Assembly (NCBI GenBank): GCA_015179045.1
Contig: WHUZ01000094.1
Coordinates: forward strand, 158,770 to 222,769
DNA: 64,000 bases
Direction: 5' to 3'
Source of the DNA: Kalaharituber pfeilii
Taxonomy: Eukaryota; Ascomycota; Pezizomycetes; Pezizales; Pezizaceae
The notes below the pieces were generated by a model. It was given only the letters and a program-made list of their open reading frames with translations. It was not told the DNA's origin and searched no databases. The first letter of the stretch is position 1; every line of letters begins with the position of its first letter. Below, piece by piece: positions 31,840-62,141 of the stretch. The position numbers and the translations under genes are program-made.

Positions 31840-32036
31840 TCAATCAACATCGAAGGATTTTGGCCCAGATATGAAGGTATCAATAAGCCTGACATACCCT
31901 GCCATGGCCACGTGCTACAAGCGGGGTTATGTGATTTAAAAAAAAAAATAAAATAAAATAAAATAAGCCTGACATGCGAGATGCTGAACCCAATTCGTAC
32001 CGGCGCCACCCATAGCAGGGCTCGTAATCAGTTATC
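31840..32036. repeat. Dispersed repeat, copy 1 (occupied by a micro-retroposon)
   Basis: Matches 47110-47227 over about 115 bp once the insertion is removed. The clearest part is GCCTGACATGCGAGATGCTG through GGCGCCACCCAT. Nearly all differences in the well-aligned part are C/T or G/A transitions. What the repeat derives from is not clear. Confidence 0.75.
31882..31975 (+). mobile_element. Micro-retroposon copy D with 14-bp target-site duplication
   Basis: A body starting at 31896 (ACCCTGCCATGGCC) ends in GCGGGGTTATGTGATTT and is followed by an A-rich tail containing AAAAT units. The 14 bases AATAAGCCTGACAT stand on both sides (31882-31895 and 31962-31975). The related repeat near 47.15 kb has this target once with no insert. 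Poly(A), a target duplication and an empty site together indicate retroposition. Confidence 0.85.
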
Positions 32037-32536
32037 TTTTTAAATGTTCGAATCCAGCTTACCAAGCCCAGAAGTTGGTCAAAATGGTGACATTTTGAGC
32101 ACCAATGTCAGGGGTAATTTGGTCCTATTACCCAATGTTGGTACGAAACCGAATGAGGTAACCAGACGAGAGCAACCAGCGTATACATTAGGTAAGAAAA
32201 GTTACGAAAAAGGTAATTGCAAGGGAGGAAATATGAAGGACTAAAATTATGGGATGAATTCCTCTTTACCCACTCTCCTCTCTACCTCTTTCTTTTCTAC
32301 CAATACTCAGTCCGATATAGATCTCTTAAGAAGTAAGGCTTCGAAATGGTGTCAACCAGATTAAGGGCGTCGCGTCTATTAACATTACGATGCCCACATG
32401 TGACAGGTCTATCCATTTATTCACTACTTACCATGTACGTCATCTGGAACTCTAACAGCCTTCAGAAACAGATCGGGTTACATCTAATCTGAGAGTCCAG
32501 CTGCCAGATTTCGACACATGCACGCATTCACACTCA

Positions 32537-33935
32537 TTGTTGAACAATTCCGCCTCAGAAGACCAACAATCCCTGGAGAACTCCATAGACTCCCTTGGTT
32601 CGATGTCTGACGCACAATTCATAGACAAGGTTGCCGATAGTTCGAGCTTCCATGAGGTTTTACTTTCTTTGCCTGAATACCTGCAATATGGCCTTGCTTT
32701 CGAAGGAAGTGCGTGGCCCTTTAGCCTGAGAGCAACATGGCTCGCCCCTGATCCTCTCTCCCCGTTAGTTATACCCTTCCAAATCGCAAATAAGGCAGTT
32801 GTCATCGAACTAGTCGATTTTCCACATTTTCGATCTGCACTATATGCAAAAGACTCGATACTTCCGAAATCGAGCCCTGTGACTTGGCTGTCGGAAGAAG
32901 TGGCAAAACGCTTATCTCGAAGTATGCCTACCGCGATAGCCTTTTTCTTTCTACTAAATTGGACACTCATCGTAGTGTTGCCACCGGAATCTAAATTAGA
33001 TGAGATGGCTATACCGTCAACAGCATATACGTCTAGTTCCAATTTCTGCCATATGGTATCTGTAGATAATGCAGCAGATAACGGCATACAATCTGTAACC
33101 CCCGGTCATCGTATTGAAAGGCGAGGACCAAAATGCACAGGAACCGCTAACGACATTTAACAAATTTGTCTTCACAAGTGCATGCGGAGTGGTTGTTCGT
33201 TGGAGAGGCAGGCCTCTCTTAACAACAACTACCCATGGTTGGAGTGATCCACAGCCAGCCAAAGAAGTCTTCTATATCGAGGTACGTGGATGCTTGTTCT
33301 GGGACTTGGAGTCCAACCCAGGTCTACCTCTCTATCTCCCTGGCTCTGACACCACTGTAGCTTTGATCCTCAATACATATGACTAATAGTAGCATATGGT
33401 TCTAACTCCACCAATATTGTAGAATGTTTTGATATTGAAATTGGGGCTGATTTGGAACCCGGGCTTGGCGACTTCCTGGGAGAATATGTGTCTCTCCTTA
33501 CAACCTCCTCACAAATAGTCTCAGACTATACAGTAGTCATGACCTGCACTTTGTAGGCGTTACAAAATTACACCCCTCATTTAACCATCCCATCCACATA
33601 ATCAGCCCGTACCCATTGAGGGATGAGCTATCAGGAAAATCAAATCCACTTGATTAGGGAAACATCATTGGCCAGGGGATTTTCAAGAAATCCCCTCAGG
33701 GTATTGCGGAGCCAGCTGTTGCCACAATTACTCGCTCTTTTCTATGGCGACACTTTCGGGAAACATGACTGGTCTAAGAGGTTCATCCGGTTCACCTCTG
33801 GAGCTTTGTGGCCTACGGATGGAGGGAGCAACGGGCCAAATGATAGGTTTTCAAAGCTGGCAGTATGGAAACTTCATCTTTCATTTCCGTGAGACTATGA
33901 ACGCAGATTCTGAGTACGTCCAGAATGCCTTATAG
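32537..33935 (+). pseudogene. Decayed gene, possibly a trypsin-fold (serine-protease-like) protein
   Basis: A first frame (32537-33160, 207 codons) reads as protein: HEVLLSLPEYLQYGLAFEG, and WLSEEVAKRLSRSMPT. A shifted frame at 33114-33281 gives FVFTSACGVVVRWRG and TTTTHGWSD, resembling the His-box region of chymotrypsin-like folds. A later frame at 33744-33935 gives GLRGSSGSPLE, resembling the Ser-box. A possible intron (GTACGT at 33282, TTGTAG at 33420) does not restore one clean frame. The best reading is a frameshifted remnant. The protease link rests on two short motifs and is an inference. Confidence 0.4.
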
Positions 33936-36589
33936 CTGGTCGGCCATCCCTTCTACGGATTTTTGTTACTCCCCGAAGAGCTATTACAATCCGATAATTT
34001 TGTGAATGCTGTCTGATACGTATGTTTTTTTTTTTGCTCCGATTTACGCATCGAATTTCCAAACCATGAATTCAGATGCGAATGCTCTCATTGTGTTTTT
34101 CAATAAGCATTGCTACCACATTGAACCCTCATGCATTGATCTTCTTGCACCAAGGATAACCAAAGTTTAATCCCCTATGGTGAGGTTTTGCCTACGGTGC
34201 TATGCTTTCCGATATCTTACATTCTCCCTGAAGCTTGACTACCACATTAGGGGTGCATAGATTTCGACAACTAGAGGTATTATACGACTGTGATGGTAGT
34301 ACGAAATATTAAAGTGCTCAATCCATGGCCATTGGTCAAGCGATTTCGAGGGATAAAGTAAAAAAAATAATGTTTCCTTTGTGTTCCTTTTCGTACGTTT
34401 CCTCCCAAACAACGAATATCGCAGATGTCAGAACGGTTGCACCAAGTGTTACTTGTAAAGGAAACGGGGCATAAAAATAAACGTTTCCATTGAACACAAT
34501 CATCAGAAGACGCTTGCCCAATTACTCCCTTTCGAGGAATAACATGTCAATGATCATTTGAGCATTGACATCAGTTCAGTACTGCCAATTGCCCGAGGAT
34601 AGCTGGGACCATCAAATGTATATCATTTTCTCTCAACAGTAGTTATTGCTCATGCACCATACCATTAGCTTAACAATAATACGTAGATCTAACGGTACTA
34701 GTCTCCATCAATGTTCAACAAAGAGGCGCAAACATGAGTTCCTGAATTGAAAAAGAAATGAACCATGACTTGCGATTGCCTCTCCTTCTCTTATACTTGT
34801 GCATAGGTGCTCGTTAACAACTGTGTTGACGGGGGGCACATTTAAAGTATTGCTCCCTCTTTGAAGGACAATACCCTACTCTCATGCCCGGCTTTACAAC
34901 ACCCCCCAGTGTCCTGCTGTGTAAATCTTGCTGCCCGGAAGCGGCAAGATCATCTGCTAGTATTATTTATGACAGTGTAACTCAAAATATCACAGTCGCT
35001 ACGGTAATTTGCCGATTCCGAGCGCGATTCCAATTTGAACCAAGTAGTTGCCCCACCTCACACACACGCCTCTGACAGCTTTTGAAAGCAATCTATTAAT
35101 GGAAACTTATCCACCTCTGGTGATGTCACGTATACTATGTCACTGACAGTTGCGTATGCATAGATTTGCATTCTGCAATGGTAAGAAACATGTTTGATGC
35201 TGTACCCTAGACAAATGAACAACTCATCATCATGCGCCGAAGGTACCCTACACAGAGGTTTGTCTCATCACTACCATGAGTTCCTTCCTCATGGTCGCTG
35301 TTATTGATCTGCAGATATAAATCGAGAAAGTAGAGTAATAGAATGGCTGCAGGGCCATGCAGCCAGGTAGACTAGAGAAGCATTACAGGAAGTCTAGAAC
35401 AGCGGAGTAGTTGATGGGGGTTATGATGCTCTTCATGCAGGGCGCTAGGACCCTGCATCTCTCTTCTACTTTGTGAATGGACTGCACATACACTAGTACC
35501 TAATGCTGTATGACAGCTGTACAGTAGCATTTGCAACATTCTGAGATCCATGTTGGAAACTGACCAGCTTCCCCGCTCATTCCGTCGGCAATGACGTCGA
35601 CACCAGTGGGTGATTTTGTCGGTTGATATTGCAACGTACAGTATCATGCAGTTGATAGGATCAGCCTGGATATGGATGTGAAATGTGACTATTATCCATT
35701 CGTTCCACTCCTGGTATTAATTGAGATTGTCCTGTAAATTGAATCGCACCGGATTAATCCACAATTACTGTGTCAAAACCATCGCTCCCCTATTGCTCAG
35801 CTAACTCCAGGCGCAACCACTTCTTGGAAAATGCTCTTCACCGAGAAGGCGTCCATCTGTTGACCCTTAATTATTCTTTTCTGCTGTCGAGCCACTCAAA
35901 GTAGCATAGCTGTCCACTTGGACTGAGAGCTGCAGTATATCATATGTTCAGCATCCCACATTGACTCACCTTTGCAGGGAGCCTGAGCATGCAATCTCTA
36001 GGTAACCAGTCATTCCATTCACTGATCAAAATCTACACTGCAATACCTCATATTGCATGATCATATGATGGCTGCCTGTTCTGTCGCCAGATCCTACCGG
36101 ATCTAGCACTTAATATTTATAGACCACCAATATGGATCCGCAAGTCCCGCGTCATGCTGTTACCTAATCGACTTGCCCAGGAATATGCAATAGCCATATG
36201 TGAGAACGGGCCGAGCCGCTTCTGTCTGCACATGTTTGAGTAGACTTTCACTATAGAATGGTCAAAACCTCTAGATATAAGGCTTAATGTGGATTGCCCA
36301 TTACTTAACCTCAGCAACTGTTTATCATATGTTGTTAACATTATACTATCGTACTTATTAGTGTCGCTTTATTGGTCCATAAAAGTTCCGGTTCCGCTCG
36401 GTTCAACCAGCATGAATCCTGAATCTGCACAGGAGAAAATGTACAGTCACTGGACAAAAGCCTTGGTGAAAGGGATCTAAAGACCTCGCAGCGGCAGGGT
36501 TGACATAAACAAGAAATATTGTTCACATCGGTCCAAGTCGGTCCAAGTCGGTTTTTTGGTACAAGTTTTCTACTTAGACTAACACTAAC
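33936..36589. other. Intergenic region with no visible gene
   Basis: Only short frames are present. A TCGGTCCAAG unit is repeated twice near 36525-36550, just before the AT-rich block. No domain, RNA gene or large repeat was seen. Confidence 0.45.
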
Positions 36590-37064
36590 TTGCTTTACCA
36601 AGTTGTTTTTTTTAATAAACTTGAAAATAGAGCTAAGAACCAACTTAGACAAAAATTATTTATATAGTAAAATATTAAATTTTCAACTTGTATTTGTTTT
36701 AACTTATTAGTTCAAATTTTTAAATGTAAAAAAACTTAACTTACACTAAAAAACCAATAAGTTAAACTAACAAGTACTTGTAAGTAATATAAATACTAAT
36801 AAGAATTAATATATCTTAGTAACAAGAAATCTAATTAACTTTTAACTTAAACTAGTAATAGTATTAATAATATAAATATATTATAAATAGTAATAAAATT
36901 GTAGAAGTATTTTAATATTTAATAATTAGAGTCCTTTAATAAGACCTATAGATCTAATACTTAAGAACTATATAAGTTTACTAAACTATTAATATTATTT
37001 TCTTTATTATAATTAGAAAGATAATAGAGTTTTTCTTTATAATAAATATAATTATAGACAGGAA
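36590..37064. repeat. AT-rich block, probably RIP-decayed repeat DNA
   Basis: Roughly 475 bp of extremely A/T-rich sequence (TTAATA, TATAAA and TAATAAT strings) with sharp edges against normal-composition DNA on both sides. Such blocks are typical of transposon remnants mutated C to T by repeat-induced point mutation in Pezizomycotina. No element can be identified from what remains. Confidence 0.6.
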
Positions 37065-37220
37065 TCACGGCCACTCATTGTAGGTACTGCTGGTTACGCC
37101 TCGCGCCGGATTGAACCTGGTCGCATTTAATATAGCTTGGGCCAAAGCTAAAGGACTGAAGCACTAACTAGTCCTACAACCTGAGCTTAACTTGACAAGT
37201 ATAATAGGTCTCCCTCGCCA

Positions 37221-39215
37221 GCGCTGAATTTGATAGACATGACAGGTCCGGCCCAACAGCATGAGATGCCGCAGAATGAGTTGAATTTCATAGATATGGC
37301 AGGTCCGGCCCTACGGCCTCAAGTGAAGAAGAATGAGCTCAATTTCACAGGTATAGCAGGCCCCACCCACTGCCGCGAGATGAGGTAGAGTGAGCTGAAT
37401 TTGATAGGCATGGAGGGCCCGACCCGACGGCTTGAGATAAGGTGATTTGACATGCATGGCTGAGCTAATCTTGATAGGTATAGCAGGTATGGCCCAACGG
37501 TGTGAGATGAGGTCAATTTGACATACATGGCACTCGCCATAGCCTACAAGGCGGCATGCGAGTAATGACATAAAAAAAAAAAAAAAAAAAAGACATACAT
37601 GGCAGGCTCCGGCCCAACGGCGTGAGATGAGTCAGAATGAATTCAATTTGACAGGTATGGCAGATCCGACCCACCAGCATAAGATGAGGTAGAAGGAGCT
37701 GAGGTAGAATGAGCTGAATTTGACAGGTATTGCAGGCCTGACCTGATGGTGTGGAATGAGCAGAACTTGATAGGTATGGCAGGTCCGGCCTGCCAGTGTG
37801 AGATGAGGTGAATTTGACACACATGGCTGGCCCGATCCGATAGCACGGGATGATGCAGAATGAGCTGAATTTGACATGTATAGCTAGCCCAATCCGACGG
37901 CACGAGATGATGCAGGATGAGCTGAATTTGACAGGTAGAGCAGGTCTGAGCTGATGGCGTGAAATGAGGTAGAATGAGCTCAATTTGACAGCTATGGCAG
38001 ATCTGACCCGCTGGTATAAGATGTGGCAGAACGAGCTGCAGTAGAATGAGCTGAATTTGACAGGTTTGGCAGGTTCGATCTGACAGTGCGAGGGGAGGTA
38101 GAATGTGCTTAACTTGACATAGATGGCAGGCCTGATCCAGGGCACGAAATGATGCAGAATGTGCTGAGTTGAATTCGACAGGTATGGCTGGTACGGCCCG
38201 ACAGCGCAAGATGAGGTAGAATGAGCTGAATCTGAGAGGTATAGCAGCTGCCGTCTGACGTCGTGAAATGAGGCAGAATGAGCTGAATTTAACAAGTATG
38301 GCTAGTGCAGCCCGACGTCATGAGATGATGTAGGATGAGCTCAGTTTCACAGGTATGGCAGGTTCGACCTTCGGGCGCGAGATGAGATAGAATGACCTGA
38401 ATTTTACCGGCATAGCAGGTAGGGCCCAATGGCGTGAAATGAGCTGAATTCGACAGGTATGGCCAACACTGGAGGAGTCAGTAGAATGGAGGCAAAGATT
38501 GCGGGTGCTACGAGGCAGCAGGCACACAGAGAGAGGAGAGGTGGAAGGGAGAACGAATGTGCGTTGACCAGGAAAGTTTACATACAGGCAGGTAGGAGAG
38601 GTATATATGGACGGGAGAGAGTGAACAGCAGTAGCAAATACGACTATTGCATGAACTTGAACATGATGAAAATAGAAACAGACATGACGACATGGAAGAG
38701 CGCTATAGAATGCTGTAGCATGATGTAGAGCGCTGTAGAGCTGTGGATGTTGGCGCGGTTCGAGAGCGTTCTGTGGCTCGGGTCGATCACTGCATTGTAG
38801 TTACCAGGAAGTAACCCCTGTTAATTCCTATTGCGGCGTGACATAGCTGGTACGACCGGACGGCGCGAAATGAGGTAGAATGAGCTAAATTCTCGAGGTA
38901 TAGCAGCTGCAGTGCGAGATCGTGAAATGAGGTACAATGAGCTGAATTTGACAGGTATAGCAGGTTCAACCCGATGGCGCGAATGAGATGAAGTTGACAA
39001 GTATGCCTGGTACGGCCCGACAGCGTGAAATGAGCTGAATTTGACCGGTATAGATGGCACGGCCCGATGGTTCAAGATGATGCAGAATGAGCTGAATTTG
39101 ACAGATGTGGTAGGCTCGAGCTGATGCTACAAGATGAGGCAGAATGAGCCGAACCTGACACCTATGGCAGTCCCCACCCGAGGCATGAGATGATGCACAA
39201 TGAGCTGACTATAGC
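37221..39215. repeat. Minisatellite of 57-bp units, about 2 kb
   Basis: Consecutive units begin at 37225, 37282, 37339 and 37396, exactly 57 bp apart. They share GAATTTGACAGGTATGGCAGG, then a CCCGACGG-type part and GAGATGAGGTAGAATGAGCT. Copies vary by substitutions and small indels. The array is broken by unrelated sequence at about 38462-38830 and by a micro-retroposon at 37533-37591. Because 57 is a multiple of three, the minus strand stays open in more than one frame (up to 260 codons); these frames show no protein-like conservation and are not called genes. Confidence 0.9.
37520..37604 (+). mobile_element. Micro-retroposon copy E with 13-bp target-site duplication
   Basis: The exact 13-mer GACATACATGGCA stands at 37520-37532 and 37592-37604. 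Between them is a short body (CTCGCCATAGCCTACAAGG, then CGGCATGCGAG) and about 20 As. The body aligns with copies A and B in start, order and length but is more diverged. The target is a unit of the minisatellite. Confidence 0.75.
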
Positions 39216-42200
39216 TTTTTATTTATTTATATAGCTGTAAAAAAGTAAAAAATAGAATTTAATAAATTCTTAAAGTTAACTTTAAATACCTCTAACAGCT
39301 ATAAGAGACTAGTCTTGCTCCTAAGCGGAGCAACACCCATGCATGAAAGTCCGCTTAGTCAGCGTCTGGTTACGAGACTAATAAGAGACCATAAAAAAGC
39401 TAACTCCTACTTCTTATTTCCTATAGTACTATTCTACTAGTACTTCTTAATAATATAGTTTTGTACTTTACATGTCCATTATGTAAGTGCCTACACCCAA
39501 CATACTACATATCCACCTTCTTCTTAATCACCTTCTTAGTATTTGCCACACTCTTCTCACCATACTCTTCTCGCCACACCCTTCTAGCTTTACCCACCGG
39601 CTTCAATATGCTTCACGCTGGACCTAACATTACAATCTATCTAATATTCCATTGTTACTTAACGCAGCAAATTCTATCTCTGCCGGCCCCCAAGACTTTC
39701 TCTCCAGTTCCATGCATTTATTAAGAATATACTGGATATTGCATAATTACTCATGCTTCAGGAAATGCTTGCACGGCTTATTTTCACTGATCCCATACGC
39801 ATTGCCAGAAGCCTGTCTGACTGGAAATACCCTACGAACCAGAATATATTTGCCCCAGTCTTATGTCAATGTTGTCTGACCTCAGTTCTTGAACCCTCCC
39901 TATTGGCCTCCGAGATTTGCCCGCACGGGCAAAGCTCCAGCAAAATGCAGCGTCCATGGTTTACATCTCCTGTAGAGAGGGATATTCTATTCTTGATCTA
40001 CTATCAAATTCAGGTTGAGTTATATTACAGTACATTAATTTACATATACAAGCACACCTTCAGAATATCTGGAGCGTCGATTCTCTGGTCGCTCGCTTAC
40101 TGTGAGAATGTTTTTTCTCCCCCCTGACATAACGGATAAGAAAACGGAAATAGATTGCATCACATTTTTCTGGAGGTGGCATCCTTGTTTCTCACGTTGA
40201 AAATTGACATTGAACCAAGTCAAGATAAGTCTTCAAATAACGACTGGCTAATGAGCTAAGACATGAGGCATCCTTTGCATTTCCGCATAAATAATACCAA
40301 ACATGTGATGATTTTATATGACTCGAAACATGGAGAGCATCGACGTCGACTATATCGATGCCATTTTTTTTCTTCTCTCGACTGAGGCATCGGCAAGGAC
40401 CGATCAACGCTTAACTCCGATATCACACTGGTTTACCCTCAGAATAGTGCAGAGTCTGATACAGATTGCAGTATGGGTCATACTCATCAGCCCTAATTAG
40501 TCCACCGTATACGCTGCATGCAATAATAAAGGTGAAGTTGAAGCTGCATAGAAGCTGAACGATGCATATGGTACGTGTCACACCGACGAAACCTGCCACC
40601 CTGTGTATCGATGCATTAATCAACACTTCCTCACATTGTACCGTATAGCACAAGACCCTCTTGAGCCCGTAGGGATTACTTCTATCCATTTCTTTCTCTG
40701 CCTCTCTAATCAGCCTGTTATTCGGCTTCAAGTTTCACAACAGGACAATTTCAGCTGATTCCATAAACTGGAATGTACAGCTTACGAAACATCCCAGTAC
40801 CTGCAGAAACAAATACACCGATCGTCACCGATTTACCGATTCCCCGATCCTACAACCTCATTATCAAAACGTATCCAACAGCATTGTTTCACGAATCCCA
40901 CTTCTCACATAAGTCGTGTGGGGCCCAACTAGCAGTATCCAGAAAGAGTTCCATTGAATCTCCTGAATATCAATCGTAAGGAAAAGAAATAAGAATTGGA
41001 ATACTAACCGTTTTCATTCCCATGATGATTGATACGTTTCCGGTTTCCGTTCCCTCATTTATCTGCCGTACCCTCGTATATCGAACACCTTCGATCGTAT
41101 CAGGCACCAAGATGGAGAATAAGGAAGAACGAGGAACCAGGAAATGCAAAAGGCCTCAACACCCGTCCACCGTCATTCAAGCCACTACTCGATGGAGAAG
41201 ATACTGAGACCGCTGTGGATCTCTACACTGTCTTGTGCTCCACCGGCTCATTCCTGAGGCCCCCCTACCCCGCGGCTCAATTGAGCCTGGCAGCCACCTT
41301 CCAGCATTCTCCCGGCGGCAAAGTCCTCGATGCGTACTTAGCTCAATCCAATGGCTTTCCATACCAGCTGAATATGTATCAGGGTCCTGCTCCAATTGTC
41401 TTAGAAAACTACACCCTTGGCCGCTATTCCCGGAGTTTCCCACTTTACTTCCCGCGCCTGATATGAATCCCCACACAAAAGTGCTCATACAGCCTCAGAG
41501 CACCTAGGTAGGAGTTCCTCCCTTTTTCTGTTCTTACCGTGTTAGTCTGGTTTTATGTTAAGCCACTTGAGACTGAGCTCGAGAATGAGAGTGGTACCGA
41601 GACTTAGGTGGAGTGGTGCTCGCGCTGCCCCGGAAAAGCAAGTTTGGGCAGCACTGAAGATGTTATGATATCAGAGTTACTTGTTCTTTAGGTCTTAAAG
41701 CTGATTGATTCTAGGAAGTTAGTACGGTACGGGTAGTATACTGAACTTCCTCGTTCTAAGTGCCAGGCAAATGAGGGTTGAGAGATGCTGGTAAGCTCTC
41801 TCCTGTGTAATTTTTTGGGGGGGGTACTTAGAATTTTAATTCCTTTCAATAATTCTTTTTTTCTCCCCCTAATCTACAATTCTCGTGCTGCGATGCGCTG
41901 AGCCGTGCGTGCGTTGCGCCGTGCGCGCTTGCGTTTGCGTGAGGCCTGCATTGTGGAGTACTTGCTTGTTGTGCTCTATCCGCGCGATATTATATTCGGG
42001 ACGAGGCTAATTGTGTTCTTACTTGCATAGAGATGTACATATAGAGCACGCACAGCAGGTTTACCTATAGCACTCCATGGCTATATCGCGATTATGTATG
42101 TGATCGAGGTGCGGGAGTGGAACTAGGTAGATTTGATTCGACAATTGGGATGGCTAACATGGGAATCCCGCACTATCAAGTGCATATGTCTTCAACCCCC

Positions 42201-45588: not shown

Positions 45589-45813
45589 TGTAGAGGGAGG
45601 AGGGGGGGTCCGATATTTCAACCGTTGGCGGGGGGGATATAAAGATTCAATGTGGGTAGAGCGTGTGTGTGGTGTACTGTGGAGTACCCTAATGGGAGGG
45701 AGGCACATGGGTTCGTTGCCGGCGTGCGAAGGGGCAGAAGCCGCCACGGCCGAAGCTAAAGCAGTGCAGTCTGTGCTGTGGTGGCAGGGGGAGGGCGACT
45801 GGGGGGGGGTGAA

Positions 45814-45835
45814 GGGGGGGGGGGGGGGGGGGGGG
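45814..45835. repeat. 22-base guanine run upstream of the cyclin gene
   Basis: An unbroken run of 22 Gs on the + strand, with further G-runs at 45801-45809 and 45896-45903. It lies about 230 bp upstream of the cyclin start codon. G-quadruplex formation is possible. Homopolymers of this length are also prone to sequencing error. Confidence 0.85.
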
Positions 45836-46220
45836 AGAGGGGGGTCAGGCCCAGGGGGTTGCGAACGTGAACCCTGGGAAGGGCAGGCCGAATTGGGGGG
45901 GGGGTCGAAGGGTCCAATAGCACTAGCTGAAGCTGCGCTGGGCGCAGGGGTGCGGGCACAGGTCTCTCGCGGAAGATGCGAGGGCACGCCCCGACAATGT
46001 GATTGTGGTGGGTTGCGCTCTGGGTAATCCTGCAGGCGCAGGGGGGTGCCTCTCGCTATCCCCCGTTCGCGCTAGGCGTGCGGGCGCTGGTGTGGGTGTG
46101 GAGGAGCGAGCAAGCCGAGCGCTGGAGGAGCAGAGTCCAGGCTGCAGCTAAATGTCGTCTGCAAAGGGTCCTTCCTCCTCCCTAGACTATCATAGCAGGA
46201 GCTGGGCTGCGCTCCCAGCT

Positions 46221-46254
46221 GCGGGCGGCGGGCAGGCGGGCGGGCGGGCGGGCG
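46221..46254. repeat. GGGC tetranucleotide repeat
   Basis: GCGGGCGGCGGGCAGG followed by five GCGG-type units, in the GC-rich region ahead of the cyclin gene. Confidence 0.85.
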
Positions 46255-50200: not shown

Positions 50201-53200
50201 AGGCACAATTAAACTATTCTGCAGCTAAGTACTAGTCTGCATCTGCTCATGTGTGCTATTCTACAACTACTTGTACGTAACCTTTAGACATTCCAATGGA
50301 TGGCGACTGTTCATTGGTCGATGTTGGTCTTTCTATGACGTTCAAATACCTCCCTTTGCCTTGAGTTCAGTAAGTGTGGCTTATGGGCAGGCAGCATTCG
50401 GCCCAGCTTTTAGGCTATATCTGGAGCTATGAGGTCCGATTTCATTGTTCTTCTATGGCATGCGATGACATGTTCTGAAGTTCTTCTTCACATGAGTCCA
50501 CGGCTGGCTACGCATGAGTGTTTCACCTACTAAGTACTAGCAATAGCAAAATTTTCAAACAGTTCATTATGCATATACGCTTTGATGCGTGGAGGTCATC
50601 CTAAAGCACTGAAAAATTAGTGGTACAGTATGCACATCGAAGTATCAATCAGCAATATTTTCCTATTCTGGGATCGTGAGCAAGTAACGATGCTTGTGGT
50701 CGTTAACCCCACATATATTACTCGGTCTCGAACCTTGCTACCGTATATTTCTGGCGCTGCTCAGGTTGTCTATCTGCTCTAACTCCCGTCATCAAGACTA
50801 GTACAGCAGCTGGGCACCGCAGTCGATTTCTGGTAAAGCGGACTATTTCAACCGAAATATTTCCTACTTGAGCTTCTATAGCAATTGCCAACAGGGTTAT
50901 ATAGTCATTAGGATTGCATTGTTCTTCACTAGCAACAAGGATTATGGGGCGGGATACTGTATCATGAGCAATGAATCTCAATTCTCAATCATTATGCAAC
51001 AAAAGGAAAGAGGCAGGAAAGACATCTCAGTTTATGAATAGTGCAGTAATTGAAGATGAGCAATGATAACTTCCACAGAAGGAAAGTCCTAGCTGGGAAA
51101 CAGTGCAATGTTCAGCAACATACAGAATATGATCACTCAGACGTTCCTTGCTTTTTCCGCGTACATCAAATATTCTATCCGGCAAGCCAGTCAGAGCTAC
51201 GGTTAGATGAGGATGTTGAGCCGCCCAGAGTTATCCGAAGTCACAGTTCTGTGTCACAAAAAAAGTTGAGGTAGCACCTGTTTCCCGTCATAAACCCACT
51301 AACCACATATCCCCGAAATGTGGAGGAGCTCTGCGCACCACGACTCCTCATCACAACAGTCAACACCATGGAAAAAAAAATTCCTCCCAATTATCAATTA
51401 TCCGTTTCGTATCACATAGAGATCCACATGTGCAAGCGTGCACCTGCCATAGGGAGCATACCACATCATATCGCATTGGGTAGACCAGAGGTAGCTGGTC
51501 TTGCATAACACTTCTCTTCTCCTTTGTTGCTTTTTTTTTTTTTTTTTTTTTTTTTTTGAAACTTAGTTTTTACTTTTCTTTTCTTTTGTTCACTTTAGTT
51601 AGAAATTCTGCTTCAGATACCCCAGTACATTGCGCAAAGGAGCATAGTTTGGCTGAAGATGTTGTAAATTACTGACATGTAGTGGCGTTAACTTGAACCT
51701 AACCGCCCCAAGTTTGGAAGCTCCATATTGCTAGTTTCTCATTATTTGGACCTCGAGTTGCCCCGCATCAACTACAAGGGAATGGAGAGGCGGGAGAGGC
51801 GGGGGAGGAGCTTGCGCAATTGCTGTGCATTGCATGGTACATCCTCCGCACATCAATACCCCCTCCTTCGTTGCGAAGCAAGAATTCATAGTGGAAATTG
51901 AACGGAGAGGTACCTCAATCTAGTATATATGTATGCGGTACATGTGCAGGCGCATAATATAGAATAGAAGGGGATGTGGAGAGGTAATTCTCATGCCAGT
52001 GGGAAATTAAGTTTTACTCGAGGTGGGTCCCCCACGTTACGTAAGGATGATCATTAATTGTTTATGTTGTTTAAACTCTGACATGATCTGAGCAATTATG
52101 AAACACTAAAAATCGGCTCATGGTGATGATGTTTTATGGAAGGATCATCAGAGTTTTGCTTTTGCAGGTGAATGTCACGTGAATTTGTACAGGTGGGAAG
52201 TTTTACAATGCATGATGATTGGTAGGTTAAGATGGGGGACATCAAGAATAGCGGCCATTGCAAGATGAAACCCTGCATGGTACATACGTGCAGTGTTTAG
52301 ACCCCGGCAGTTATAATTACTGCAACGAAGGATACCGGGTATGCAGGAGCTTTGTTTGAACGAATGTATCCATACATTGAATTATCATCCGAAATTACAA
52401 TACTGCCGAACGTACAAGTTAACTGCTCTGCTTCAGGATGCCTTTATTCTACTACCTGCTCAAAGCATGTAGTAGCTTTGATGTGCAGATTCAATGATGT
52501 ACAAGGTCTGTGAAGGATGTACGCATATTCTACATACGTACTGTACTGTCCCTCATCCCATGACTCATGATCATCTCTCATCTCATTCCACACCGCAGCT
52601 CAGCTAAAACTCTAACTGCACTACGTTTCACAGCTTTGAAGCTTGAGCTGCGTTTTCTACAAATATTCGCCGGTGCTCGACCCCGCACACCTTGCATTCC
52701 CATGGAAGCCTTTTTTTTAAGAAGATAAATGATAATCATGGCAATTGGGTTGAAATGCGGATGACATGTGAAATTTCGAATAGGGCCCTGGAGTGAGACT
52801 AAACTCCCAATTGCAACCAGGAGGTAGGGCCTAGGCTTGATAACATCGAAACGAAACTCTAGGCTTGGAATGGTTAACGAGTTGAATGGAAGAGGGATTG
52901 TTAGTACGAGGCCAGGATTGTTCTAGAGATACTGGGGCTAAGGTGCCTTTATGACGTTTTTGACGTTTTGTCGTACTTGTTTAATTTCAGGCTAACATGA
53001 TAGGCCGAGACGAGGCCGATGTAAAGCGCTACAGGGCATCCATGGGGAACGGCTTTGTCCTTTGGGGTCTCCAGCCTTGGTGTTACGCCTCTCCCTATCC
53101 GCCCCATAGCGAAGGTACAGCGATAAAAATACTGAAGCAGGGATATCTTCGGTGGTCATCGTTTTAGATATCGCAAACATTTCAATTGCGACTGGTTGGT

Positions 53201-56200
53201 TGGTCGGAGCTCCACCCACCATCTCATCTCAACCTCATCTATGACATGTACTGTCAATGACCGCTCAATGGGACAGACTGTTCAATGGACAGCGAAACTA
53301 AGTTAGCTAAAGTCTGCTCAGAACTCAAGCAATTGCTGTTGAGGCCAAGGCGTGCATTGATGATTTTCTAAGTAAAATTAGTGTATCCCATTGAACGGTC
53401 ATAGACAGTATGCGGACGCTGCACTTCTTGGATGGGGGGTATGTTTTCTTTGTCCTGATTGGGAATATGGAGCACATGTTTCGAACCCGAACTTGAGACT
53501 CGTCCCCATTGACAAACGTACGGAACGGGGCGGGAATGGTCAGCGGGCTGTGATGTTGATGCAATCCAAAGTGGACTGATGTCCTGATGTCTGTCCTGGC
53601 GTAAGGTTCCTTATGGCCAAGTGTGAAAGTTGATAAATGAGTAAACTGAACGTGATCTCCAAATTTGGTTAGGATTGGGACTTGGCATGGTTGAGGCGCC
53701 GAGAGTTAGACGACAAAGTTAAGCTCAAACTGGTGATGGATAGTCGTGGCTCGCTTCTCGTGTCGCGTGCTCGATCTGGTACCGGTCGAGGAGGGCGATG
53801 GTGGGGGCACTGGTGAATGCGGGGCGTAAAGGGGCCGGCAGACTAGGGTTGTCAGAGATACAGTAAGGCGATTCTTGCCCCATTCTACTAGTGGGGCATC
53901 GTTTGGAGTATCTGCAAACCCGTTTTGGAATGTACCCGAAGAGTAAGATAGCTTGGAAGTTGCGGGCATCCAAAAAGCAACAAAGTTAGGAACGGCCCAG
54001 CCCAGGAAGATCACCCGCCGGGGGCAGCATGTGGGAACGGATGTTGCTTTTGTGCAGATGTGAGATGGGTCAACTATGGGTGCCGAGATCGTGCCGAGGG
54101 CGCTGGATCGGAATAATCCATACAGGCTAAATGGGAGCTCCCCATCGGTTATGGTTATTCGGTGGGCCGGAAGGGCGATGGAAGCGAACGTGCATAACAG
54201 CATATGCATAAGGGAAAGGCAACCAAGCGTGAGTGATCGAGATCTGTGCTGCGGAAAAGGTAAGGCGGAGATGGGAGATGGGGTGTTGGAGATGAGCTGG
54301 GGGTGCAATTCCGCGCGGCATGCATGCATTGCTAATACATAGGATGTAAATATGGTATGTATTCTGCAACAGTTTGATGAACTTTGGGAGCCCATGGTGA
54401 TACTCTCTATCTAGTTGGGTTTGTGATCGATCCTGGGGTGCCAGTATCCCCGGAAATGGTCGCCTGCGCACACAGTGGTGGGCAAGCGGACTGAGCTTTT
54501 CCGGGTAAGCAGAGCCTTGCTGCTTCTTCCCCGACATTAACTGCAGATGCATCAATTGGGCGGCACTCCGGTCCGATGTTCCTGCAGACACGTTTTGTAC
54601 GTACCTTCCGTGGAAGCTTCGCTGAATGTTCTCTATAGACATGGATTGAAGCGCAAGCTCAAATACCATTGGCTTATCGATACGGAGGGCAGTGCATGGG
54701 GGCTGCAAGGGACCAAATTGAAAGCAAACTTCATTCCAGGTCGGGGGCGTCTGTTTACAACAATTGTGCGTGAACCCAGGATTTACTCGCCTCCCGCATG
54801 AATCCAACAGGCATTCCAGAAGCTGTTTTTCCATGCATGCAGGTTAGCATTCCAAGCGTCACCGCTGCCTCCACTCCACCAATTACATTTCTGCCTCCTT
54901 GAGGATTGCTCTGCTGGCCAGCCATCGCGGCGGGCATCAGTTTCAGCAGCGCTATTCTTTTAGTAATTAGAAGCCACAGTACGCTACATGCAACAGATGC
55001 AGATGTTGGACGCCTCTTGCCACTGCATTGCATTTCGAGTTTCCTCTGGAGCTCCCACAGATCTTCCAGGGGTTTATTAGCGGGTTTTAGATCCAAACCC
55101 GGGTTGAAGGGCGCCGCTGAAGGAAGAAAAGCAAATCTCAACTTTCAGCAGGTACAGAACCAAGAGAGGTGGAGGTCGCCATAGCCACGACGCTAACGTC
55201 GCCACAAGGCTACCATCTGAAATAGCGAACACTTCCTCTGCCCTACTGTGTAGGCCTTCGCTAAACGCGCGCTATACCCTTCGGATGGACCTTTCCAAGT
55301 TGGAGGCTGCCGCGGGCAAGAAGACATGGGACGAGACACAAGTGGTGCCGAGACTAGAGACAAGTCATCGTCCAACAAACACGAATTGGTATGTGCACAA
55401 CCCATGTCAGATGTTTCTGCGTACTGTAGGTGACCGTCAGCACAATTGACCGAACACAAGGCGAACGACGCGACACGACACCGACATTCGTGGGGTCACA
55501 ATTTCACAGCTTCAAGTACCGCATGTGACTTTGCCGAGCTCTGCCACGTCGCTGCACGCATGCATGCATATGCATGCAAGGGAGCCACCCATGCATTTCA
55601 ATTTCTCTATTTGCAAACAGAAAATAAATACTGTAAATAATGGTTTAGTGCAAGCTCAACTAAAGGTTGATACCGGTAACTGAATTCCTTTTATTATTAG
55701 TGGTTTTGGGATACCGTGACTATGCATTCTTCCTCCCAGCTTTCCCCTTTTTCCTGATCTTCCCGATCGTCGATCGATGGCGATCGACTGCATTTGTATG
55801 GCCCATTGAGAATCCATCTGGTGTGCCCTTGTTCCTGCTTTCAAGACCAGCTTTGTCCTTATGGGGACCGAGGTCACCTGAGCTTGATGGTACTGATGCT
55901 CGGTGCTGAGTTTGAAGGGCTCACTTTGGTGAGGCGTGGGGCATCAGGTCTTATTCCTCCGTACGTTCGGCGCTAAATGAGATGGAGTATCAGGTCATCG
56001 AGCATGAGACGCCGATGGGAAGGTTGGGCGTCGGACCGAGTGGGTATATCGATGAGATTATCACATGGGGGAGGTAATGGCGTTATAATTGGGGAAAGTG
56101 TCAGGCGGTGAACGTGTAAGGGCTGAATCTCGGCCTACCTCAATTAGGGCTAAGCAGCAAGGAGAGCTGTAAACTTGATGATCGAGGAGGCTGGGTAGCT

Positions 56201-58365
56201 TTAAGGCTGGGCGAAGCAGAGAAGGATAAGTGTTACGGCCTGGAGTGGAGTCGGGTTATGGTTGGACGTTGGTTGTTTCTGTTGATCAGGAGCATATTGG
56301 GCCGTTCATAACCAGCAGTTTTGATTTGCTAATATGGTACAATACGGCTGAGGCTAGATGTGTTTTCCGGGTTTGCACTGTTTTGAATACGCTGCATCTC
56401 GGCTGGAGAGTACCAAACACGTTTGCACGGCTATCCGCGGGAGTGAGGTTCGGGACGGGCCGAGCGGTGGAGATCAGCTTCCGAATCTCATTCTAGGAGG
56501 TTGGGGATGACTATCATAACAGAATCGTCGACTCACAAATTGAGGGAACGATTGGTGTTTGGATCATCCAGTAGCCAGAACACCACAGGCCAATTAGAGC
56601 ACTGGTATAGGACCTGGGGGCTCTCGCTTATGGAACTTGGAAAACTAATTGGCTTGCAAATTTGATGGTAAAATAAACCAGGCTGTTTACGATGCAGCAC
56701 CTTGTGACCTGTGTAATATGCTGCTATTGATTTCTATCTAAGCATGCTGTCGGTTATGGGTTATACGAGTAAGATATACAAGTTACATAGAGTAACACGC
56801 ACACATGTGTATCGAGTTATCCGGTGAGATGGTGTTGAGGATGAGAAAATACCAACTTCTACTCTGGGATCAACTTTTTCTCATTATCCGGTGATGCGCA
56901 GGAAAATACAAGACAGCTCACCCATTTTTCATCCTATATATAGATTACAAAAGTGTAAACTATTTGTATATAGTAGACAACACACCTTACTGTAAAACCC
57001 CTGAGTGAATTGCTTACTTATTAATTCTAAAGCTTACTATACTACATCATACATTGTATGCAATGTGAAACTTCCTTACCTCCAGTACTACTGTACAAAG
57101 AAGTTGCATATATACTTGTAAGTATCATGAAAGAAAAGGAAAGCAAAGAAAATACTCAAGCCCCAGAAAATAAAAGCATATTTATATATTAGGTCGAAAG
57201 GACACCTAATAGTGAAATTAAATATCGTGAGAAAAAGCATACATACTGTAAATCATTAGTTTGCTTCATGCATTATATTAGCCAGACACTGGACATGCTG
57301 ACATAAGCACTTACTAATATGCTGAGATGAAATATCTTTTCTTTTTTTTTTTTTTCTTTTAATTTCATTTTCTCTTATTTTCTTTATTTTCTTTACTTGG
57401 CTTTTTTGCAAACCCCATTCCGGAGTGGTAGGCAGCATTGCACTTTCGTATTACTGTAGCGTCGCACTGGGTTCTGGCACCTCATGGTCCCAAGGCACTA
57501 TGTAGTGATATGAGGGTAAGAGGTGACACTCATGTCGATACGAGTGTCCACTGTCTAATCGCTTCATCTGGTCATTCACATTTCTGTTGTTCTCATCAAT
57601 CGTAAGGATTATTACATGTGCTATGCAGTCTACACGCGCTGCTCGCTCAAATCAAAGCCTGTCGTTATTACTCTATATCTAGACTGATATCTCGCCTCGG
57701 TACTTCTGTCATATAAGACTGACTGCTCCGCTCCCGTCATGGCCCGGCCCGATGATAGAACTTGTTGACGCCTTTATGAGATTCAAGTCAAGGGGCAGTG
57801 GTGCCTGTAGCTGTGGTGAATGGGCAACGCTAGTTATCCATTGATGACTGTCGATAAGGATATTCAATTTCTGGCTAGCTTGTGCATGGCCAGCTATGCA
57901 TACAGGGCTATAAGGGATATAAGAGAATGGAAACTGTATAACACATTTCATTAAAAGAAATTGTAACTCAATACGTCTTCGGAGACAGCGATATTGTATA
58001 GGCTGTACGGTACATTCATCAATATTGATGTAATCTACTAGAGAGAGATGGAGAAAGAGAAGGAATTCAGCATTTCGTGCAAAGTGACTTAGCTGAGGAA
58101 AATTGCTGCAGTACAAGTTTATGAATTCAGAACATAATGTGAAGAAAGTATGCTATTCCACATCCATACCACAATCACAGGCAGGCCTAACTGCACAAAA
58201 CCTTAAATTTCAAACCCTCCATGCTCCCATCTCTGCCCCATGATCTTTCAAAAGCTTTATTGCCCACTCGAGTTCAGCCAGTCTCTCCGGATCCCTTTGA
58301 AGGTGTCTCACCTCACTTACATAAAGTTGTTCAGCCGCATTTAGTACAGTACCATACTCTCTACC

Positions 58366-58452
58366 CCTCACATTCGCCCTGCCATGGCGAACAGCTGCAT
58401 GCGGGGTCACGTGAGGAAAAAAAAAAAAAAAAAAAAAAAATCCCTTACATTC
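58366..58452 (+). mobile_element. Micro-retroposon copy A
   Basis: The body at 58376 begins GCCCTGCCATGGCGAACAGC and ends GCGGGGTCACGTGAGG, followed by about 24 As. CCTCACATTC (58366-58375) and CCTTACATTC (58443-58452) flank it, a 10-bp duplication with one C/T difference. It splits an ankyrin-coding frame: the codons for Asn-Val-Arg occur on both sides. Confidence 0.82.
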
Positions 58453-59406
58453 ACCTCTGCACCCCCCCTTTTTTTTTTTTTAGTAATATTAGTTTTACAA
58501 CTAAGCCCTAGAGAGCATGTGGCAGCTTGTAAGACACTTCCATACTGTCCTGCCGTTATATGTGCATCTGCACCTGCATTCAGAAGCATCATGAAGACCT
58601 CCAAAGATCTCAATGCTGCTGCGTGTAGAGTAGTGCCGTACATTTCTCCCATTATGTTGGCTTCTGCTCCTGCATCTAATAACACTTTGACTATAGATTT
58701 CTTGCCCTTAAAGGCAGTGGCTTGCAAGGCAGTCCCATATTGGCCACTGACAATGTTGACGTCTGCTCCTGTATCTAACAGCATTTTGATTATAGATTCA
58801 TCGCCCCTACGGGCAGCGGCTTGCAAGGCAGTCCCAGAGTGGCCACTGGCAACATTGATATCTGCTCCTGCATCCAACAGCATTTTGAGTACGGATTCAG
58901 CTCCCCTAGCAGCAGCAGCAGCAGCTTGTAAGGCAGTCCCATATTGCCCGCCAACGAGGTGGACATCTGCTCCAGCATCTAGTAGATATTTCACAATAGC
59001 ATCATGTTCTGACAGGGCTCCTCCTTGAAGAGCGAATTCATAGCTTCCTCCCTCCGCATTTACTTTTGCACCATGCTCTATTAGGAGCTTTATAATATTA
59101 GTCTTAGTTTCAGTATTAGCCTCTTTGTCAGGTACCAGTATCTTATCAATAGTCTCTTTGGGGGATGTCACTGCCTGCAGCACAGTATCATAATATCGTT
59201 GCTGCACATTAATGTCAAGTCCTTGGTCTAGTAGAAACCTTAACATAGCCTGTTGACCACAGAAGGCTGCTAGATTTAAAGAGCTGTTGGTATATGGATA
59301 ACCTTCGAGCTCTAATTCGTTACCTGGAACAGTAAGATTTGCTCCTCTGTTAATAAGCATCTGAGCAATCTCTACTGACCCCTGCATTGCACTTGCCGTA
59401 ATTAGT

Positions 59407-59454
59407 CTTACTAGAGGCCCTGCCATGGCGAACAGCCGCATGCGGGGTTACGTG

Positions 59455-59492
<38 letters not shown>

Positions 59493-59503
59493 CCTTACTA
59501 GAG
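59407..59503 (+). mobile_element. Micro-retroposon copy B with 10-bp target-site duplication
   Basis: The exact 10-mer CTTACTAGAG stands at 59407-59416 and 59494-59503. The body starts at 59417, GCCCTGCCATGGCGAACAGC, and differs from copy A by C/T changes (AGCCGC for AGCTGC, GTTAC for GTCAC). The tail is 37 As. It interrupts the ankyrin region of the NLR-like pseudogene. Confidence 0.85.
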
Positions 59504-61163
59504 ACAATATCTACTTGTGCACCGTGTCAACGTTTCACCATTTCAGGTTGTTACCCTCAACTGCCCCACGAAGTGCATAACGCACATCTTGATCAGGTAT
59601 ATTGACATCGCCGACAAGATCCAGTAGACCTCTCACCAACTGAATTGATCCTGTGCTTGCTGCATCAGCAAGGCTCACAGATTTGCAGATCCTTTCTTGA
59701 TTGAGGTTGCTGGAGAAAAGTTGTTAGTAAACAGGAAGCATATCAACAGTGCAGTACCAGATAGCTGAGACAGTATCCTCAAAACCGTCATGAGAGTCAT
59801 TACCAAGGTACCATGCATGCAATATGGATAGTAAGGAGTTGATAGGAAATTCATCAGACAAAATATTCTGCAGTAGCTCTTTCAAAATACTAGTAGAAGA
59901 TATCTTTGCTGAACATAACTTGACATGAAATGGAAATGAAGTAGCAATATAGTGGAACAATTCCCCGGTGAAATTGAGGAAATTGGAAGTACGGCCAAAT
60001 AGGTGCATAGTACGGAAGCCTACCCATATTGTTTCAATGCTGTGCTATTTGTGTATATGCATTTATCCAGTCCCACCCATTGTCCTAGGGCCACTCTCTT
60101 ATAAGAACCCCTGTACTGTGTAATATATCAGTTGCACTATATCCTGCTAAACTGCAATAAGGCCGCAGCAGGAATCAACAACTGCTTGTGGCGAGTACTT
60201 TGTCTTGAGGAAAACAACCTCATCTGGGTTGGTGGCAACTACCTGTGCAAACTCGACGCAGCTTAGATGTCTCCTTGCTATGATCACCCAAGTCAATGCC
60301 CAGCCAGCAAGGGCTTTCATGGCTAATGTCTGCTTGGATATTTTGCCTATAATGTGCCTATATGTTGCATCAAATGTCTGATGGTAGTGATTTTAGAGCA
60401 ATTCTGATGTCAGCTAAGGAAGACTGTTCGAATAATTCATCGATTTGACATTTTGCCCATAGAAACCTGGTTGACCTTAACAATGAACATCTACTTCAGC
60501 ACATTGATGATTCTTTCCCCTCCACTTCTTGTTTTTGTTTGAGCCACTGCTGTTTTTTTTCTAGAATATTGGTTGTTTTCTCTATGAATGTACTATGTTC
60601 ATTGAGATTTGCCATGATTGCTGCAATATTGGCTTCCAGGAGCAGTATCAACTGTTGAACAAGCAAATGTGCCTGAGATTTTACCTACATAAGGTAAGCA
60701 TGGAATGCTTGGGAATATTTGTTTTGAACCGGCGGACATATGCTGTTAAGTGCACCTTTCCCATCCATAAAAAGCCCGCAAATACTTTTGAAAAACTCAA
60801 TCAGGTCACCATATGCAACGCATAAGGCCTATGGACTTCTAATGAGTACAGGTAACTGTAAAGCAGGGTAGTATAGCTTATCTTCTTCACTCCGTCGTAG
60901 TGGGAACATAGCTCCGCGTATTGCAAGAGATAACCTAGATAACGCATCCATTTTTCCATTGCTTCCTCTAATTTATCAAAAAGTCTGTATATCGTATCCC
61001 AGTCTATACAGAAATAATTAGAATCACAGCAGAAAGCAAGAGCAGAGACCAGTTGAGGCATATACTCAGAATGTAAACTCACGTCAATAAAGAAGCGTAA
61101 TCCCCCGACAACGAGGGAGGAAAATTCCGGGCTGCGCTGAGTCATTAATCCCTGGGCATTCAA

Positions 61164-62141
61164 GTAACTATTGGAAACCGCTAAAAAGCCCTTGACTTTT
61201 GATGTATATTTCCGTGTGATAACTGTTCTAGCCTGGCCACGGATATTGTTAATTCACGAAGCGACGAGTCTGTTCGCGGATGGACTGATTCCTGAATAAA
61301 CTAGTCCACTCGTGAACCTGGAACAACGCCCCAGCACAAGTACCATTAGGTACCTCATTTGAGTAACATTTCAGGGTCTTATCTATATAGACAGAGATAT
61401 CCAAAATCCTCTGCCATTCCAGATGTATAAATGTAGAAATTACAGGGGTTGCATTGATGCCAAGTATCTTAGTTTTGGTGGTTGGACTGCCAGAAAGGGT
61501 AGTTAAGATGCTTCTGCAAATGCCAAGTATCCTTTTTTTTGATCACGTAACCCCACATAAAGGCGGCCGCTGGCAAAGTATACATTTTAAGCAAGTCTTG
61601 AAGTAGTTATTTCATTAAGGAATTTTTCTACTATCACTTCTTGTCTGTGTTTTATTCTAATCATCTAGGTACATGTGAGTCACTGCCTCGCTGCAGTGTA
61701 TACCAACCTCTTTCCATTTTTTTCCATAGTCAACATGCTTTCAGTTCCAATTTCTCAATATCTGTATTCACAGTCCCAACCTCACTCACATCTAGCCATA
61801 CCTAAAACCTAAGAACTTTAAGCAAATGCTACTCTATTGAACTAATTAGTTTTCATACACTGTATTGACTCTTAGATTGGCTATGTCTGTGATTGGGAGT
61901 TTGTGATACATGTCAAGGTAAAATTTCTGTCACATTTTTTATCCTTAGGTTTAATTAATTGTATTCCAGAAGTTACATGTCCAGATCATTGTGATAAAGG
62001 AAATTCTGGTAATTATACTAATTAGACAGAGGGAGAGTGATGATCTTGATATATATATTACTACTGTTATCTCATAGATAGTTATGGTAGCTTACTATGA
62101 CCTTAAATCATTAGCGAGTATATAGATACATATCAGTACCT
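61164..62141. other. AT-leaning segment inside the NLR-like remnant
   Basis: About 1 kb with no open frame of note lies between the two N-terminal pieces of the NLR-like remnant. Apart from micro-retroposon C nothing is recognised. It may be inserted or strongly decayed DNA. Confidence 0.4.
61525..61581 (-). mobile_element. Micro-retroposon copy C (diverged, minus strand)
   Basis: Read on the minus strand it starts TGCCAGCGGCCGCC, ends ATGTGGGGTTACGTGATC, and has a tail of only 8 As. AAGTAT flanks it on both sides (61525-61530 and 61576-61581). The 3' part matches copies A and B closely; the middle has diverged. The short tail and short duplication suggest an older insertion. Confidence 0.6.

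What the first reader, a model, noticed from the sequence alone, without database searches (positions are those of the whole stretch)
31882..61581. A family of micro-retroposons: ~40-nt body, poly(A) tail, target-site duplications, five copies
Copies A (58376), B (59417), C (61575, minus strand), D (31896) and E (37533) share one layout. They start at CCTGCCATGGC or close variants, carry a GC-rich palindrome in the middle (CCGCATGCGG in B, GCGGCCGC in C), end near GGGGTYACGTGA, and have an A tail of 8-37 nt. Each has direct repeats of 6-14 bp at its borders, and the target sequences are unrelated. Seen directly: bodies, tails and duplications. Known: LINE-type reverse transcriptases make such tails and duplications, and ordinary SINEs are usually over 80 nt. 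Inferred: the common start means these are complete copies of a very short RNA, not random 5' truncations. The palindromes could fold as hairpins for recognition. I know of no described element of this size, but I could not search.
Basis: partly seen in the sequence, partly recalled or inferred. Interest (0 to 1): 0.92.

Follow-up and report, generated by a model that had tools for sequence, protein, structure and literature searches.

The report
Bare-hairpin micro-retroposons from fungal LINEs
This fungal genome is strewn with insertions of only about 36-39 letters plus an A-tail, each matching the predicted hairpin at the very end of a longer jumping gene (a LINE), and they were likely made when the LINE's copying enzyme used an RNA trimmed down to that hairpin.

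Summary
The micro-insertions are real and abundant, but not an isolated element. The host is a 78 Mb Pezizaceae-like fungus. The main body's 3' end plus A-tail occurs at 1966 places (control 0), and a second body type (window copy E) at 1619 (control 0). Both are 3' ends of LINEs with RT and RNase H domains. Window copy D is letter for letter the last 42 nt of such a LINE.

The 5' end is unusual. Of 100 copies chosen by 3' end only, 60 have a supported target-site duplication; 38 of those start 37-41 nt from the end, mode 39, within a nucleotide of the first base pair of the predicted terminal stem-loop. Four start at 75-77 nt, the foot of another predicted hairpin. In the second family 11 of 23 start at its stem-loop foot and 10 of 23 spread over 70-190 nt, like ordinary truncations.

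Covariation supports the hairpin. Micro and long copies of the main type have the same subfamily mix, so likely one RNA pool. Best explanation: hairpin-bounded LINE RNA fragments copied by target-primed reverse transcription. A self-propagating 39-nt unit is not excluded. Copy C's duplication is at chance level; copy A's is weak.

The parts
58376..58414 (+). Copy A body (39 nt, GGGGTCACGTGA type); A-tail to about 58440; imperfect duplication 58365-58375 / 58442-58452
   Evidence: 10 of 11 letters, 25/400 random as good: weak
59417..59455 (+). Copy B body (39 nt) with predicted 7+4 bp stem-loop; A-tail to about 59491; duplication 59404-59416 / 59491-59503
   Evidence: 12 of 13 letters, 4/400
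61541..61570 (-). Copy C: partial, diverged LINE-2-type tail starting inside the hairpin; duplication at chance level
   Evidence: 43/400
31896..31937 (+). Copy D body (42 nt) identical to the last 42 nt of the LINE in L077; A-rich tail; duplication 31882-31895 / 31962-31975
37533..37571 (+). Copy E body (39 nt), second (beta) family, matching the 3' hairpin type of LINE L078; A20 tail 37572-37591; duplication 37520-37532 / 37592-37604

Best explanation
These are 3'-terminal pieces of LINEs, each one predicted stem-loop plus an A-tail flanked by a target-site duplication, likely inserted by the LINE's own target-primed reverse transcription from RNA that had been cut back to the foot of that stem-loop. 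Shown: the bodies equal LINE 3' ends, duplications flank them, and the 5' ends pile up at the predicted stem-loop foot in two separate tail families. Inferred: the stem-loop is the site that the LINE enzyme holds; 5'-to-3' decay or cleavage of LINE RNA stalls at the stem-loop or at the enzyme bound to it; and the surviving hairpin-A(n) fragment is then copied into DNA. The 76-nt form likely arises in the same way at a strong hairpin further upstream. Micro copies with the tails of several LINEs suggest that the fragments were made many times over.
For: Same 3' end as LINEs: L077 (RT and RNase H) ends in copy D's exact body plus A-tail, and L078 (RT and RNase H) ends in the E-type hairpin. 8 of 9 further 3' ends fetched downstream of RVT_1 matches of neighbouring score (92.9-97.1 bits) carry the alpha hairpin tail. 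The L158+L077 LINE has frames of 1007 aa with CCHC knuckles and 1248 aa with EN, RT and RNase H domains. TPRT marks: duplication score >=8 in 60 of 100 alpha copies against 5 of 299 mismatched pairs, and in 23 of 40 beta copies against 9 of 236. Duplications run 8-17 nt, mostly 12-14; median tail 23. 5' ends at the foot: of 60 supported alpha copies 38 start at 37-41 nt (20 at 39), 8 at 42-45, 4 at 75-77, 6 below 37, 4 above 77. In beta 11 of 23 start at 34-38 (foot = 36), 2 at 43, 10 at 70-190. Hairpin: folds; in beta the outermost pair is C-G in 25 and A-U in 11, the innermost C-G in 27 and U-A in 9, of 37 distinct rows; 21 cells changed on both sides against 6.4 shuffled, 0/500. Several parents: micro copies with tails of type M, LINE-2 (L039), L077 (window D) and both beta outer-pair types. 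One RNA pool: M copies without and with the upstream sequence have the same subfamily mix (54/18/11/7 against 21/5/4/1, p = 0.77). Established reasoning: an RT stopped by structure should halt before unwinding a hairpin, not just after it.
Against: The micro share differs greatly by tail: 37 of 49 type M copies against 7 of 47 copies of LINE-1/2/3 letter classes (p = 1.4e-9), which the model does not predict. In that sample the 6 micro copies of the LINE-1-like letter class all begin with G, whereas 38 of 42 long LINE-1-type copies have A there, so those six are not plain LINE-1 ends. Three copies with A at that place were seen (L199-L201), but the fetched stretch stops in the A-tail, so their duplications were not checked. 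6 of 60 start inside the hairpin; beta starts scatter over 34-38. In longer context the fold adds one outer pair, so the foot is at 40 rather than 39 in type M and LINE-1, and for the LINE-2 3' end the lowest-energy fold of 78 nt is not the local hairpin. Covariation was counted on copies chosen by a pattern that leaves only 2 of 9 pairs free on both sides, and the number of pairs with changes on both sides (2) is no more than shuffling gives. One of the 4 starts above 77 (L082) lies in the 1.36 kb element and is probably a false duplication. No RNA data: the trimmed RNA is not observed.
Confidence: 0.52

Rival explanations
1. Enzyme drop-off: the LINE reverse transcriptase starts on full-length RNA, copies its recognition hairpin and tends to let go just after it, before settling into processive copying. 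The spike is an early abortive product, as in the usual account of LINE 5' truncation.
For: Ordinary LINE truncations exist beside the spike (10 of 23 beta copies at 70-190 nt). M copies with and without upstream sequence share one subfamily mix. PMC2104539 (passages seen) says LINE truncations likely result from RT dissociation.
Against: The second discrete start at 75-77 nt (4 of 60) also sits at a predicted hairpin foot, some 37 nt further on, where release from the recognition site would not be expected. Structure-induced stops should lie on the 3' side of a hairpin. Type M has a predicted hairpin just upstream but the beta 3' end folded has none, yet both families spike.
Confidence: 0.28
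2. Self-propagating micro-SINE: type M micro copies are transcribed (for example by read-through), trimmed to hairpin-A(n), and re-inserted, so the 39-nt unit amplifies by itself.
For: Type M is mostly micro: 37 of 49 against 7 of 47 in the other classes tested. Micro copies of the LINE-1-like letter class in the sample begin with G, not the A of most long LINE-1 copies (6 of 6). None of the 8 GGGGTAACG copies with the GAACAG core on contigs C1-C119 (one search list) is in the long list, by my comparison of the two lists.
Against: The M subfamilies TA, GA, GC, GT and CTTGG all have long forms, and the mix of the first four matches (p = 0.77). No tRNA and no Rfam match in the window; 39 nt leaves no room for a classical internal Pol III promoter (recalled; promoter boxes were not scanned).
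Confidence: 0.17
3. Chance: A-rich stretches with accidental flanking repeats.
For: Copies A and C have duplications near or at chance (25/400 and 43/400).
Against: 1506, 1966 and 1619 pattern matches with zero in the controls; duplications in 60 of 100 against 5 of 299.
Confidence: 0.01

Closest known systems
5'-truncated LINE copies (general)
   Same: Same 3' end as the LINE, A-tail, target-site duplication
   Different: PMC3747384 (passages) describes truncation at various positions with lengths of 100 to 1,000 bp; here a discrete class of about 36-39 nt starts at one structural point
LINE/SINE pairs with a shared 3' end in fungi: Mg-SINE with MgL/MGR583 and SINE2-1_BG with Tad1-24_BG
   Same: Non-autonomous copies sharing the LINE 3' end (PMC3747384 table passage); 3'UTR stem-loop of LINE and SINE mentioned for Tad1 in fungi (PMC5135761 passage)
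   Different: Those are listed with tRNA promoters; MgSINE is 472 bp in about 100 copies (PMC5063351 passage). Here no head was found, only the shared hairpin
Stringent-type LINE 3' recognition (for example UnaL2, SART1, Chlamydomonas L1-1_CR, R2)
   Same: 3'-terminal stem-loop plus, as in SART1, poly(A) (passages)
   Different: Binding of the stem-loop by the enzyme is not tested here
Tailless retropseudogenes (therian L1)
   Same: Retrocopies with defined rather than random end points tied to RNA structure (PMC5322556 passages)
   Different: Those lack the A-tail and are cut at the 3' side in single-stranded regions; these keep tail and hairpin and are cut at the 5' side
HAL1 (half-L1)
   Same: L036/L037: 1.36 kb, an ORF1-like frame, same 3' tail
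   Different: A side branch of the same LINEs, not the micro copies; HAL1 is described in mammals (PMC5322556 passage)

Membership tests
5'-truncated LINE copy | 3' end identical to a LINE present in the genome | tested here: met
   copy D = last 42 nt of L077; E type = hairpin type at the end of L078; 8 of 9 further LINE ends carry the alpha tail
5'-truncated LINE copy | A-tail and target-site duplication | tested here: met
   60 of 100 (null 5 of 299) and 23 of 40 (null 9 of 236)
5'-truncated LINE copy | variable 5' start points | tested here: not met
   spike at the hairpin foot, 38 of 60 and 11 of 23, beside a broad tail in beta (10 of 23)
SINE | small-RNA-derived head (tRNA, 5S, 7SL) | tested here: not met
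   no tRNA and no Rfam family in the window; the body is only the LINE hairpin
SINE | internal Pol III promoter boxes | not tested
   boxes were not scanned; the 39-nt length argues against them (recalled)
SINE | 3' end shared with a partner LINE | tested here: met
SINE | separate lineage not traceable to LINE copies | tested here: inconclusive
   subfamily mixes match long copies, but type M is mostly micro and one small group has no long form in the part compared
Stringent-type LINE 3' recognition | conserved 3'-terminal stem-loop | tested here: met
   folds; compensatory changes at the 2 of 9 pairs left free, 99.4% of cells paired; LINE-2 fold is an exception
Stringent-type LINE 3' recognition | enzyme requires the stem-loop | not testable with these tools
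   needs a binding or retrotransposition assay
Tad1 clade LINE | RT phylogeny within Tad1 | not tested
   only domains (EN, RT, RNase H, CCHC) and relatives in Kalaharituber pfeilii (83% and 73%) were seen

The most novel reading that the evidence does not exclude
The LINE's bare recognition hairpin is itself the mobile unit: a promoterless 39-nt retroposon that spreads by being trimmed out of any transcript that contains it, held by the LINE enzyme and re-inserted, which would make it the smallest self-propagating retroposon known to me.
Probability: 0.18. Interest if true: 0.86.

Novelty: new variant of a known kind. Interest (0 to 1): 0.62.

Why it matters
What a LINE enzyme holds and what it copies are usually mapped in the test tube. 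Here natural insertions (46 of the first 100 of 1966 listed alpha places and 13 of the first 40 of 1619 beta places; several hundred genome-wide by extrapolation) mark, nearly to the nucleotide, the edge of the smallest RNA that the LINE machinery inserts: one hairpin plus an A-tail. That would make the recognition motif of these LINEs readable from genome sequence, would let template trimming be told from enzyme drop-off as a cause of LINE truncation, and shows how a genome can fill with insertions far shorter than the repeats usually catalogued. Insertions this short may also escape repeat-targeted fungal defences such as RIP (inference; not tested).

Tried and rejected
Tried and dropped. 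(1) That micro copies of the LINE-1 tail type always begin with G while long LINE-1 has A, which would argue for a separate lineage. The lists suggested it and the 6 such copies of the sample fit it, but 3 of 3 unchecked A copies fetched (L199-L201) lack LINE sequence upstream and begin with A; so 'always' is wrong. 14 A copies stay unchecked. (2) That micro subfamilies lack long relatives: the CTTGG subfamily has 182 copies by one pattern and 49 long ones by another; the GGGGTAACG group (34 copies) was left open. (3) RVT_1 matches of highest score as the source: 7 of 9 fetched (L070-L076) show no such tail and look like LTR elements by their chromodomain-like ends (recalled), so they were set aside. 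(4) Literature: searches for shortest or micro SINEs, Pezizomycetes SINEs, fungal LINE/SINE stem-loops, Kalaharituber elements and truncation by RNA decay listed no description of such copies; they cover open-licence papers only, and of the papers cited I saw listings and passages, none in full.

Dropped rows. One search used 90 of the 100 listed places. In one search one TT copy of 91 was left out, 4 of 8 long GA copies were left out because they bear GGGGTTAC, the GGGGTA class (4 of 100) was left out of the class test, and the two lists compared cover different contigs (C1-C32 and C1-C119); 'micro' there means without CAGGGR upstream, not checked for a duplication. One search counted 99 loops of the 100 listed. 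Alignment A1 holds 39 of 40 beta copies (L172 has one extra base) plus window E. The 100 and 40 copies are the first listed places (contigs C1-C5 and C1-C2), not a random draw.
Full report
WHAT WAS CHECKED. The window is G000:C355:158770-222769 of a 78.0 Mb, 360-contig genome. Its Xaa-Pro aminopeptidase is 65% identical to those of Terfezia boudieri and Tirmania nivea, and the LINE's RT/RNase H part is 83% and 73% identical, over about half its length, to Kalaharituber pfeilii proteins, so the host is a Pezizaceae-like fungus; no call names the species. No Rfam family and no tRNA was found in the window.

THE FIVE COPIES. Scored against random pairings, the duplications of D, E and B are good (2, 3 and 4 of 400 random as good), A is weak (25 of 400) and C is at chance (43 of 400). 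A search for exact duplications flanking an A-run finds D, E, B and one 234-nt candidate, and none in the two reversed-sequence controls. E belongs to a different family from A and B, and D carries the tail of another LINE.

GENOME-WIDE. Both ends of the A/B body: 770 + 736 places, control 0. 3' end plus A-tail: 997 + 969, control 0. E type: 818 + 801, control 0. These counts include long LINE ends.

LONGER RELATIVES. Comparing 68 loci showed copies that continue upstream: a 76-nt form, several LINE 3' ends, and a 1.36 kb form (L036/L037, 99.3% alike over 1363 nt) with an ORF1-like frame of 264 and 238 aa and no Pfam match in the one tested. Downstream of RT domains, L077 ends in copy D's exact 42-nt body plus A-tail and L078 in the E-type hairpin. 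Of nine more 3' ends, taken downstream of RVT_1 matches of neighbouring score, eight carry the hairpin tail; L157 shows none within 801 nt. The LINE L158+L077 has stop-to-stop frames of 1007 aa (CCHC) and 1248 aa (endonuclease, RVT_1, RNase H). L156 bears a tail of type M.

START POINTS. I took the first 100 places found by the 3' end alone, which does not select on the 5' end (L039-L068 and L079-L148). Duplication score 8 or more: 60 of 100 against 5 of 299 mismatched pairs. Starts of the 60, in nt before the end of GTGA: 38 at 37-41 (20 at 39), 8 at 42-45, 4 at 75-77, 6 below 37, 4 above 77, of which L082 lies within the 1.36 kb element and is probably false. The other 40 have no supported duplication within the 165 nt searched; many show LINE sequence upstream. 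For the E type, the first 40 places (L159-L198): 23 supported against 9 of 236 in the null; 11 at 34-38, 2 at 43, 10 spread over 70-190. So the beta LINE has an ordinary spread of truncations plus a spike.

STRUCTURE. Predicted folds: the 39-nt alpha bodies of types M and LINE-1 form a 7-bp stem that begins at their first base, with an inner 3-4 bp hairpin; in longer context one more outer pair forms, so the foot is at 39 or 40. The beta body is a 5-bp stem with an inner 4-bp hairpin, first pair at 36 nt. The 76-nt form is three hairpins in a row and starts at the first pair of the first. In 37 distinct beta rows 99.4% of cells pair; the outermost pair is C-G in 25 and A-U in 11, the innermost C-G in 27 and U-A in 9; cells changed on both sides are 21 against 6.4 in shuffles (0/500), while the number of pairs so changed (2) is no more than in shuffles; slid versions reach 47.7% paired at most. 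The pattern fixed most other columns, so they say nothing. Against: for the LINE-2 3' end the best fold is a different one.

WHERE THE MICRO COPIES COME FROM. Micro copies with supported duplications occur with the tails of M, LINE-2 (one copy, L039), L077 (window D) and both beta outer-pair types. Within M, copies without and with the upstream sequence have the same subfamily mix (54/18/11/7 against 21/5/4/1, p = 0.77). I read this as one RNA pool giving both lengths. Two things fit less well. M is mostly micro (37 of 49) and the LINE-1/2/3 classes are not (7 of 47; p = 1.4e-9). And the six micro copies of the LINE-1-like class begin with G where 38 of 42 long ones have A; three further copies begin with A, without a checked duplication.

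MECHANISM. The copies end at the 5' foot of a hairpin that has itself been copied. An RT stopped by structure should stop on the other side. A template whose 5' end was set by trimming down to the hairpin, or down to the enzyme bound there, predicts this foot, and fits a second discrete class at another strong hairpin, as seen at 75-77 nt. This step is inference; no RNA was seen. Enzyme drop-off just after the recognition hairpin is the main rival, and a self-propagating 39-nt unit the boldest. On re-checking the first-letter data I moved a little weight from the first explanation to the rivals.

KNOWN OR NEW. Shared 3' ends of SINEs and LINEs and terminal stem-loops are known, in fungi for Mg-SINE/MgL and SINE2-1_BG/Tad1-24_BG (PMC3747384, PMC5135761 passages). 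Other fungal SINEs named in PMC5063351 are 472-900 bp where a length is given; of its Aspergillus ones the passages show 140 bp and 259-343 bp. PMC2104539 puts LINE truncation down to RT dissociation. End points tied to RNA structure are reported for tailless retropseudogenes at the other end of the RNA (PMC5322556). I found no report of a discrete class that consists of the bare 3' hairpin (searches).

Noticed in passing
L036 (C2:148774 region) and L037 (C2:162348 region): A 1.36 kb non-autonomous element with an ORF1-like frame and the LINE 3' hairpin tail, resembling mammalian HAL1 in layout; no Pfam match for the L036 frame.
   Followed up: partly
window 58407-59447 (-): A reading frame that looks ankyrin-like by eye (no family search was made) is bounded by micro copies A and B, which overlap its two ends; it may be a decayed gene.
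   Followed up: no
L087 (C2:206175-206467): Nested insertion: an alpha 3' piece sits in or next to the A-tail of a beta LINE end.
   Followed up: no
L078 2130-2260: A LINE-3-type 3' copy directly follows the A-tail of the beta LINE, suggesting insertion near a LINE A-tail.
   Followed up: no
L069 4206-5513 (-): A LINE ORF2 frame appears interrupted near its end by an A-tailed micro copy.
   Followed up: no
target sites of 48 alpha copies: T is common just before the duplication (27 of 48 at -2) and A at its first base (34 of 48), though the A-tail blurs the border.
   Followed up: partly
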